From: an uncultured Lachnospiraceae bacterium
Lineage (GTDB): Bacteria; Bacillota; Clostridia; Lachnospirales; Lachnospiraceae
Length of the DNA: 64,000 bases
Assembly: GCA_947594855.1 (NCBI GenBank)
Contig: CANQEL010000001.1
Location: 1 to 64,000 of the forward strand
Direction of reading: 5' to 3'
Under the pieces are notes generated by a model. The model saw nothing but the letters and a program-made list of their open reading frames with translations. It was not told where the DNA came from and ran no database searches. Shown piece by piece: positions 4,240 through 5,909 of this stretch (within the stretch, counting starts at the first letter, position 1; each line of letters begins with the position of its first letter). The translations under genes and the position numbers were made by a program.

Positions 4240-4268
4240 TTGACTTTTAGAAAAATAATGTGTATTAT
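4240..4268 (+). promoter_or_regulatory. Promoter of putative antitoxin RNA, copy 1
   Basis: TTGACT-17 nt-TATTAT. Confidence 0.75.
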
Positions 4269-4274
4269 TTATTT

Positions 4275-4370
4275 AGATAAAGGTGCTACCGTATAGACGG
4301 TTAGCCCGGTTTTAAATGCTAAAATAGCCGCATAGTTTTCCGGACTGGGCGGCTATTTCTGTGTCTTTCC
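4275..4370 (+). ncRNA. Putative antisense antitoxin RNA, copy 1 (ends approximate)
   Basis: Downstream of a consensus-like promoter; ends at hairpin AAATAGCCGC...GCGGCTATTT (4322-4358), which overlaps the 3' end of the opposing small ORF. Confidence 0.55.
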
Positions 4371-4454
4371 ATGATGAAATCCTATCGTATATCCTATTCC
4401 AAAGCATGTACTGCAAAGAGCCAGTACTGCCATCATATTTTCTATAGTCAGCAT
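4353..4454 (-). CDS. Putative 33-aa holin-like/type I toxin peptide, copy 1
   Basis: Translates as MLTIENMMAVLALCSTCFGIGYTIGFHHGKTQK; RBS AAGGGGGG upstream; single hydrophobic helix with basic tail; copy 2 differs conservatively. Confidence 0.8.
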   Translation of the reverse strand: MLTIENMMAVLALCSTCFGIGYTIGFHHGKTQK

Positions 4455-4565
4455 AACACACGCCCCCCTTTTCTTTAGATTCCCTTTCGGGTTTCTATGT
4501 AATCAGAGAATATTAATTTCTCCGCAGAGGGCTAACCGCCTACCATCTTAGTAGCACCTGTATTT

Positions 4566-4594
4566 ATTGTATCACAATATGTTGGGTATTACAA
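4566..4594 (-). promoter_or_regulatory. Promoter of toxin mRNA, copy 1
   Basis: Minus strand TTGTAA-17 nt-TACAAT. Confidence 0.7.
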
Positions 4595-4614: not shown

Positions 4615-4643
4615 TTGACTTTCAGAAAAATAATGTGTATTAT
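4615..4643 (+). promoter_or_regulatory. Promoter of putative antitoxin RNA, copy 2
   Basis: TTGACT-17 nt-TATTAT, same layout as copy 1. Confidence 0.75.
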
Positions 4644-4649
4644 TTATTT

Positions 4650-4745
4650 AAATAAAGGTGCTACCGTATAGACGATTAGCCCGAAAGTATACTTAAAAAT
4701 AGCCGCATAGTTTTCCGGACTGGGCGGCTATTTCTGTGTCTTTCC
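4650..4745 (+). ncRNA. Putative antisense antitoxin RNA, copy 2 (ends approximate)
   Basis: Same arrangement as copy 1; hairpin AATAGCCGC...GCGGCTATT. Confidence 0.55.
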
Positions 4746-4829
4746 ATGATGAAATCCTATCGTGTATCCTATTCCGAAGCATGTACCGCAAAGAGCCAGT
4801 ACTGCTATCAGATTTTCTATAGTCAGCAT
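4728..4829 (-). CDS. Putative 33-aa holin-like/type I toxin peptide, copy 2
   Basis: Translates as MLTIENLIAVLALCGTCFGIGYTIGFHHGKTQK; three conservative changes from copy 1 plus synonymous changes. Confidence 0.8.
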   Translation of the reverse strand: MLTIENLIAVLALCGTCFGIGYTIGFHHGKTQK

Positions 4830-4939
4830 AACACACGCCCCCTTTTCTTTAGATTCCCTTTCGGGTTTCTATGTAATCAGAGAATATTAATTTCTCCGCA
4901 GAGGGCTAACCGCCTGCCATCTTAGTAGCACCTGTATTT

Positions 4940-4968
4940 ATTATATTACAATATGTGAGGTATTACAA
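4940..4968 (-). promoter_or_regulatory. Promoter of toxin mRNA, copy 2
   Basis: Minus strand TTGTAA-17 nt-TATAAT. Confidence 0.75.
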
Positions 4969-5096
4969 TATTTATTTTTGAATTACACTTGACAAATATC
5001 ATAAATCTCATATATTATTATATATGGACAAAGATGTTTCAGCCGAAATATTTTGTCTTTTTTTATTACATAAATAAATAGAAAAGAGGACTATAT

Positions 5097-5801
5097 ATGA
5101 AACCATTAATCGGATTATTGCCACTAATAGATTATCAGAAAAAAAGCTACTGGATGCTTCCAGGATATATGCAGGGAATAGAAGCCGCAGGCGGTATTCC
5201 GGTAATGCTTCCCCTTACAGACTGTACTGAAGATATTAATATACTTACAAGCATGTGTGATGGATTTTTGTTCACTGGAGGACAGGATGTTTCTCCTGAA
5301 ATATATAATGAGAAAAAACTTGAAAGATGCGGTGAATGTTCGCATGAACGTGATAAAATGGAACTTATGCTCCTTAACGAACTTCTCACTATTAACAAAC
5401 CAGTTTTCGGAATATGCCGCGGCATACAGTTTATCAATGCAGCTCTTGGCGGTACGCTTTATCAGGATATTTCTTCACAGACTGATTCGGATATTAATCA
5501 TCATCAGGAGCCCCCTTACGATATCCCAGTGCATAAGGTAATTTTGGAAGAAGAATCTCCTATCCATAATTTATTGAAAAAAGATATTTTATCCGTCAAC
5601 AGTTATCATCATCAGGCAATTAAAAATCTTGCCCCACCTTTAAAGATAATGGCAACAGCTACAGACGGTATCATCGAAGGAGTGTATCTGCCTGACAAAA
5701 AATTTTTCCAGGCTATACAGTGGCATCCTGAATTATCTTATAAAACTGATGAAGATTCTGCAAAAATATTTACAGAATTTGTAAAAGCCTGCATTGCCTG
5801 A
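5097..5801 (+). CDS. Gamma-glutamyl-gamma-aminobutyrate hydrolase family protein (class I glutamine amidotransferase-like, peptidase C26)
   Basis: 234 aa; FTGGQDVSPEIY, FGICRGIQFINAALGGTLYQD, VNSYHHQAI, IQWHPE. Confidence 0.9.
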   Translation: MKPLIGLLPLIDYQKKSYWMLPGYMQGIEAAGGIPVMLPLTDCTEDINILTSMCDGFLFTGGQDVSPEIYNEKKLERCGECSHERDKMELMLLNELLTINKPVFGICRGIQFINAALGGTLYQDISSQTDSDINHHQEPPYDIPVHKVILEEESPIHNLLKKDILSVNSYHHQAIKNLAPPLKIMATATDGIIEGVYLPDKKFFQAIQWHPELSYKTDEDSAKIFTEFVKACIA

Positions 5802-5821: not shown

Positions 5822-5883
5822 TTTTTTTGAATTACACTTGATTTTTAAAAAAATATCATGATGAAATCCTATCGTATGTCCTG
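5822..5883. pseudogene. Decayed third copy of the toxin-antitoxin repeat
   Basis: TTTTTTTGAATTACACTTGATTTTT fused directly to ATCATGATGAAATCCTATCGTATGTCCTG, the toxin C-terminal coding segment (GHTIGFHH on the minus strand), with the intervening part missing. Confidence 0.75.
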
Positions 5884-5909
5884 TTTAATATCGCTCCCAA
5901 TCTCTCCAA

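What the first reader, a model, noticed from the sequence alone, without database searches (positions are those of the whole stretch)
4279..4562. Toxin and antitoxin RNAs start with the same sequence (inverted repeat bracketing the unit)
Seen: the plus RNA would begin AGGTGCTACCGTATAGACGGTTAGCCC and the minus RNA AGGTGCTACTAAGATGGTAGGCGGTTAGCCC, so the unit is bracketed by an imperfect inverted repeat of about 30 bp. In the Fst/par system the repeats are direct in DNA and so complementary in RNA; here they are inverted. If toxin mRNA reads past the 4322-4358 hairpin, its 3' end (GGGCTAACC...GTAGCACCT) could pair with its own 5' end, as in 5'-3' locked type I toxin mRNAs. The second copy has the same arrangement.
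Basis: partly seen in the sequence, partly recalled or inferred. Interest (0 to 1): 0.68.

Follow-up and report, generated by a model that had tools for sequence, protein, structure and literature searches.

The report
Toxin mRNA whose two ends pair
A tiny gut-bacterial gene for a membrane peptide that looks like a toxin, together with its overlapping antisense RNA, is bracketed by an inverted repeat that evolves as if the two ends of a long form of the toxin message must pair; this explains why both RNAs start alike and reveals an uncatalogued family of RNA-controlled toxin units.

Summary
The repeat is real in both tandem copies (4281-4308 with 4528-4559; 4656-4683 with 4902-4933): predicted pairing -43.3 kcal/mol against a shuffled mean of -15.2 and a best of -31.9 in 2000. 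The unit is a par-like convergent gene pair: a 33-aa membrane peptide on the minus strand, a short antisense RNA on the plus strand and a shared hairpin. The peptide matches no Pfam, NCBIfam or PADLOC model, and the RNAs match no Rfam family. It is common in one family, apparently Lachnospiraceae (114 of 397 genomes). In 136 extracted units the two repeats change together. When only one changes, the change tends to leave a G-U pair in the toxin-strand RNA: 88-90 against 35-36 the other way (p about 2e-6). Other parts of the units lack that strand bias. This favours selection on pairing between the 5' and 3' ends of a long toxin mRNA over a DNA-level cause. The shared hairpin has a poorer U-tail for the toxin transcript, and U-rich or terminator-like sequence follows the second repeat. 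Not supported: that end pairing hides the ribosome site; predicted SD accessibility is about equal in both forms. Transcripts, toxicity and the effect of the lock remain untested.

The parts
4240..4268 (+). Antisense promoter, copy 1 (TTGACT-17-TATTAT)
4281..4308 (+). Repeat A, copy 1: 5' region of the antisense RNA; its complement is the 3' arm of the lock in the long toxin mRNA
4322..4358 (.). Shared hairpin (terminator 1), copy 1; the toxin stop codon TAG lies in its stem
   Evidence: tails compared across units; the simple terminator scan did not list it
4353..4454 (-). Candidate toxin ORF, copy 1, 33 aa MLTIENMMAVLALCSTCFGIGYTIGFHHGKTQK, with stop codon
4463..4468 (-). Shine-Dalgarno region of copy 1 (GGGGGG); the 3' arm of the toxin 5' repeat and its CCUCU extension are complementary to it
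   Evidence: sequence; unit-specific complementarity; fold
4528..4559 (-). Repeat T, copy 1: 5' end of the toxin mRNA, 5' arm of the lock
4566..4594 (-). Toxin promoter, copy 1 (TTGTAA-17-TACAAT with TG before the -10)
4615..4643 (+). Antisense promoter, copy 2
4656..4683 (+). Repeat A, copy 2; the A at 4675 (G in copy 1) keeps a G-U pair in the lock but breaks a C-G pair of the antisense RNA's own hairpin
4697..4733 (.). Shared hairpin, copy 2
4728..4829 (-). Candidate toxin ORF, copy 2, 33 aa, with stop codon
4902..4933 (-). Repeat T, copy 2
4940..4968 (-). Toxin promoter, copy 2 (TTGTAA-17-TATAAT)

Best explanation
A type I toxin-antitoxin-like unit with par-like convergent layout whose long toxin mRNA is end-paired. 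Toxin transcription starts at repeat T, passes the 33-aa ORF and, when it is not stopped at the shared hairpin, runs through the complement of repeat A and ends just after it. T then pairs with that 3' copy over about 22-25 bp and clamps the mRNA's two ends together. The antisense RNA is transcribed from the opposite strand and starts at or just upstream of repeat A, so its first bases are the complement of the lock's 3' arm; this is why both RNAs begin with nearly the same sequence. Shown here by computation: the repeats, the predicted lock, their concerted evolution and its strand bias. Inferred: that long toxin transcripts exist; that the antisense RNA silences the short form by pairing over the shared hairpin and the 3' end of the ORF (with SD masking by the 5' leader in the toxin RNA itself); that the clamp keeps the long form inactive or short-lived until its 3' end is trimmed, as in hok and AapA; and that the peptide is toxic.
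For: Units located by core motifs only, without scoring the arms (136 units). Concerted same-base changes in the two repeats on trees built without the arms: r3 12 of 12 shared changes identical (expected 1.7), r1 7 of 7 (0.3), q1 9 of 9 (1.6), q3 7 of 7 (1.0), r4 5 of 5 (0.5) (first tree). Single changes favour those that leave G-U in the toxin-strand RNA: 88 against 35 and 90 against 36 on two trees, binomial p about 2e-6. The swap control agrees: ratio 2.45 in own pairs, mean 1.51 and maximum 1.68 in 2000 swaps. Leader, ORF and 3' region of the same units show no matching strand bias. Predicted lock mean -38.6 kcal/mol, against -30.1 for the equivalent pairing on the antisense strand; stronger in 134 of 136. 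The lock forms in 93 of 97 folded read-through RNAs and in the consensus fold of 79 diverse units. Terminator-1 U-tail at least 5 of 8 in 42 of 116 units in the toxin direction, 104 of 116 in the antisense direction. Hairpin plus U tract after the second repeat in 45 of 136, against 5 of 136 on the other side. Units read later, two of them from other families of the phylum, show the same shared changes.
Against: No transcript data. The shared hairpin could end most toxin transcripts. Predicted SD accessibility does not drop when the lock forms (0.21 free short, 0.26 free long), and the lock removes the T element from the SD (0.24 to 0.03). Columns q4, q5 and r7 show little concerted change (q4 3 of 8, q5 4 of 6, r7 0 of 3 identical on the first tree). 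The hairpin after the second repeat could instead be the antisense RNA's own 5' stem-loop. Trees rest on roughly 200-300 bp, so event counts are approximate.
Confidence: 0.62

Rival explanations
1. The shared 5' sequence is a self-complementary element that folds as a 5' hairpin in each RNA; the hairpins stabilise the RNAs, and the arms of one can pair with those of the other, as a counterpart of the par repeats.
For: The antisense hairpin covaries (A5q2 with A3r3, 8 shared changes, expected 0.8, p 2e-8) and is stronger in own than in swapped combinations. Direct A:T duplex -21.7 kcal/mol in copy 1.
Against: Toxin outer-stem pairing T5:T3 is not better than in swaps. Cofolds leave the antisense hairpin intramolecular and pair the RNAs at the shared hairpin and ORF end. 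It does not predict the strand bias, nor the bias at q5, which is unpaired in the hairpin.
Confidence: 0.22
2. The repeats are kept alike by DNA processes (template switching or gene conversion between inverted repeats), or they are ends of a mobile element.
For: Inverted repeats a few hundred bases apart are known substrates for template switching (general knowledge); the unit is duplicated in tandem.
Against: The core between the arms stays different: A has CGAUAGACGG, T has CGGUAGGCGG plus an insertion, which a tract over the whole repeat would erase. DNA processes predict no G-U strand bias. The promoters lie outside the repeats, so such an element would lack them.
Confidence: 0.08
3. Both repeats are alike because the 3' arm is an anti-Shine-Dalgarno sequence that both RNAs aim at the toxin start site.
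For: T3 with its CCUCU extension is complementary to the SD region, unit-specifically (z about -4 to -5); in the clade of L016 the SD region GGGCUAAGCC resembles the complement of A3.
Against: A3 to SD is not clearly unit-specific (z -0.8 all, -1.8 diverse), and the A3/T3 changes do not visibly track SD-region changes.
Confidence: 0.08

Closest known systems
par/Fst (RNA I/RNA II) of pAD1, Fst/Ldr family
   Same: Convergent promoters, shared bidirectional hairpin, toxin peptide of 33 aa, SD masked by the leader, repeats in both RNAs (PMC7472228).
   Different: Repeats inverted, so the RNAs are alike rather than complementary there; the members aligned lack the conserved tryptophan that marks the family; no Pfam hit.
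aapA/IsoA of Helicobacter pylori
   Same: CU-rich leader elements that mask the SD, and a 5'-3' end interaction in the full-length mRNA (PMC6733600).
   Different: There the end interaction masks the SD and 3' trimming activates translation, shown by experiment; here the predicted lock does not mask the SD, and nothing has been measured. Sequence relation not tested.
hok/sok
   Same: Full-length mRNA folded inert, activated by 3' cleavage, end pairing (PMC4147584).
   Different: hok has an upstream ORF (mok) and its antisense RNA targets the 5' leader; here the antisense RNA overlaps the 3' end.
bsrG/SR4 and txpA/RatA type units
   Same: Antisense RNA overlaps the 3' end of the toxin mRNA (PMC4147584).
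   Different: Inverted end repeats were not mentioned in the passages read; no sequence relation tested.

Membership tests
Type I toxin-antitoxin system | Small hydrophobic toxic peptide | not testable with these tools
   33-aa ORF with a hydrophobic stretch and charged end, conserved across genomes; toxicity needs an experiment
Type I toxin-antitoxin system | Overlapping antisense RNA as antitoxin | tested here: inconclusive
   -35-like hexamer upstream of A in 101 of 136 units; conserved hairpin overlap; RNA not measured
Fst/par | Convergent promoters and shared bidirectional terminator | tested here: inconclusive
   Convergent promoter-like sites and a shared hairpin are present; the hairpin's U-tail is poorer in the toxin direction and the simple scan did not list it as a terminator
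Fst/par | Direct repeats that make the RNAs complementary | tested here: not met
   Repeats are inverted
Fst/par | Toxin family signature (tryptophan between membrane helix and charged tail) | tested here: not met
   No tryptophan in alignment A1; no Pfam model at threshold. The signature is not absolute: the Fst prototype itself has valine there (PMC7472228)
End-paired toxin mRNAs (hok, aapA) | 5' and 3' ends of the full-length mRNA pair | tested here: inconclusive
   Predicted in 93 of 97 and supported by coevolution; full-length transcript not observed
End-paired toxin mRNAs (hok, aapA) | Full-length form inert, 3' trimming activates | tested here: inconclusive
   Predicted SD accessibility unchanged by the lock; translation not tested

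The most novel reading that the evidence does not exclude
A widespread Gram-positive toxin-antitoxin family in which the antisense RNA starts within the 3' arm of an end clamp of the toxin mRNA, so that one inverted repeat fixes the 5' ends of both RNAs, and the shared hairpin decides between a short, antisense-sensitive and a long, clamped toxin mRNA.
Probability: 0.4. Interest if true: 0.75.

Novelty: new variant of a known kind. Interest (0 to 1): 0.62.

Why it matters
If true, it adds an uncatalogued and common toxin-antitoxin family of gut bacteria, brings end-paired toxin mRNA logic together with the par-like convergent layout, and gives a rule (two RNAs on opposite strands with the same 5' end) for finding further such units from sequence alone. 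The G-U strand bias is also a usable way to tell RNA pairing from DNA-level upkeep of inverted repeats.

Tried and rejected
First extraction scored the arms themselves and was biased towards pairing; replaced by core-only extraction. Idea that the antisense loop pairs with the toxin ORF: seen in one unit by eye, not consistent in the units compared by eye. Idea that A3 targets the SD: not clearly unit-specific. First reading that bulge columns are not concerted: weakened by the swap test, where q5 is, so left open. Local alignment of whole flanks was dominated by AT-rich promoter sequence and not used as evidence. Rfam, Pfam, NCBIfam and PADLOC gave no usable family; PHROGs only weak hits, mostly unnamed. 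Paper searches found no description of this family, within an open-licence library only.

Full report
What is there. The window holds two tandem copies (375 bp apart, 93-97% alike) of a small unit. On the minus strand lies a 33-aa ORF (4454-4356; copy 2 4829-4731) with a purine-rich ribosome site; on the plus strand a promoter (TTGACT-17-TATTAT) points towards it. Between them is a hairpin, 4322-4358, that contains the toxin stop codon. A third unit lies elsewhere in the genome (C2:71709-72008) and remnants lie at 5824-5885.

The repeat. Plus 4281-4308 and minus 4559-4528 share GGTGCTAC and GGTTAGCCC; the middle differs, and the toxin copy carries a few extra bases that can form a small hairpin. 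Pairing of the toxin copy with the complement of the other is predicted at -43.3 kcal/mol, well beyond shuffles. Each copy can also fold on itself.

The family. The peptide matches no Pfam, NCBIfam or PADLOC model at threshold and only weak, mostly unnamed PHROGs; no Rfam family reaches its gathering score. With an 11-row alignment, 114 of 397 genomes of the same family had a match at E 0.01; in the class sample all 8 genomes with a match at E 1e-6 were of this family, in the phylum sample 2 of 5 were not. Named records are mostly Lachnospiraceae. Units also lie on 13 viral contigs; the peptide alone also matches one phage record and two large Lachnospira eligens plasmids, where the matched place carries no listed gene.

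Do the repeats coevolve? Units were extracted by core motifs without scoring the arms (136 units). Arm positions are numbered outwards from the core: q1-q7 in the 5' arm, r1-r7 in the 3' arm. On two trees made from the units without the arms, homologous columns of the two repeats change on the same branches, mostly to the same base: on the first tree r3 12 of 12, r1 7 of 7, q1 9 of 9. It alone does not tell RNA pairing from other causes.

Which strand? If the toxin RNA pairs its 5' repeat with the complement of the other, a lone change that leaves G-U there is tolerated, while the mirror change gives A-C. Lone changes were 88 against 35 and 90 against 36 in that direction on the two trees (p about 2e-6). 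Leaving out q1, r5 and r6, where other structures could act, 59 against 26 remain on the first tree (my arithmetic). Leader, ORF and 3' region of the same units do not show the same bias. A swap test agrees (2.45 against a mean of 1.51, none of 2000 swaps as high). Caveats: events come from parsimony on short alignments, and related units are not fully independent.

Does the toxin RNA reach the second repeat? Indirect signs only. The U-tail of the shared hairpin is poorer in the toxin direction (at least 5 of 8 in 42 of 116 units against 104 of 116 in the antisense direction; tails were counted after the outermost G-C pair of the best stem and depend on that choice). After the second repeat, 45 of 136 units have a hairpin with a U tract, against 5 of 136 on the other side; many others have short U runs there. 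These could also serve the antisense RNA's 5' end.

What would the lock do? In 97 folded units the lock forms in 93. In the short form the SD is mostly paired, with the leader (0.49) or the T element (0.24); in the long form the T element lets go (0.03), the ORF or 3' part takes over (0.25), and the free fraction is about the same (0.21 and 0.26). So the predictions do not show that the lock silences translation. Cofolds pair antisense and toxin RNA over the shared hairpin and ORF end, with the antisense 5' hairpin left alone.

Comparison. par/Fst shares the layout but has direct repeats and a tryptophan signature (PMC7472228). hok and aapA share end pairing, with inactivity and activation by 3' trimming shown by experiment (PMC4147584, PMC6733600); timP, another type I mRNA, needs no processing (PMC11228461). 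I therefore call this a new variant: it works like an end-paired toxin mRNA as far as sequence evolution shows, in a par-like layout, without being shown to be a member of either family.

Noticed in passing
window 4975-5018: A further copy of the antisense-promoter block (TTGACA-16/18-TATATT/TATTAT, 11 of 12) lies upstream of the gene at 5097-5801 and may drive it.
   Followed up: no
window 5824-5885: Remnant of a further unit: promoter block and ORF-end piece with the middle missing.
   Followed up: partly
L008 600-1100 (G000 C2:71709-72008): Third intact unit in the same genome, with an extra hairpin plus U tract after the second repeat.
   Followed up: yes
window 4353-4370 and family: The C-terminal KTQK codons of the peptide also encode the U-tail of the antisense terminator, so the two may constrain each other.
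   Followed up: partly
L227-L239: Units on 13 viral contigs, suggesting carriage by prophages.
   Followed up: partly
L009 (G000 C19:24503-24546): A 44-base stretch 80% like the toxin promoter region, without a recognised unit.
   Followed up: no
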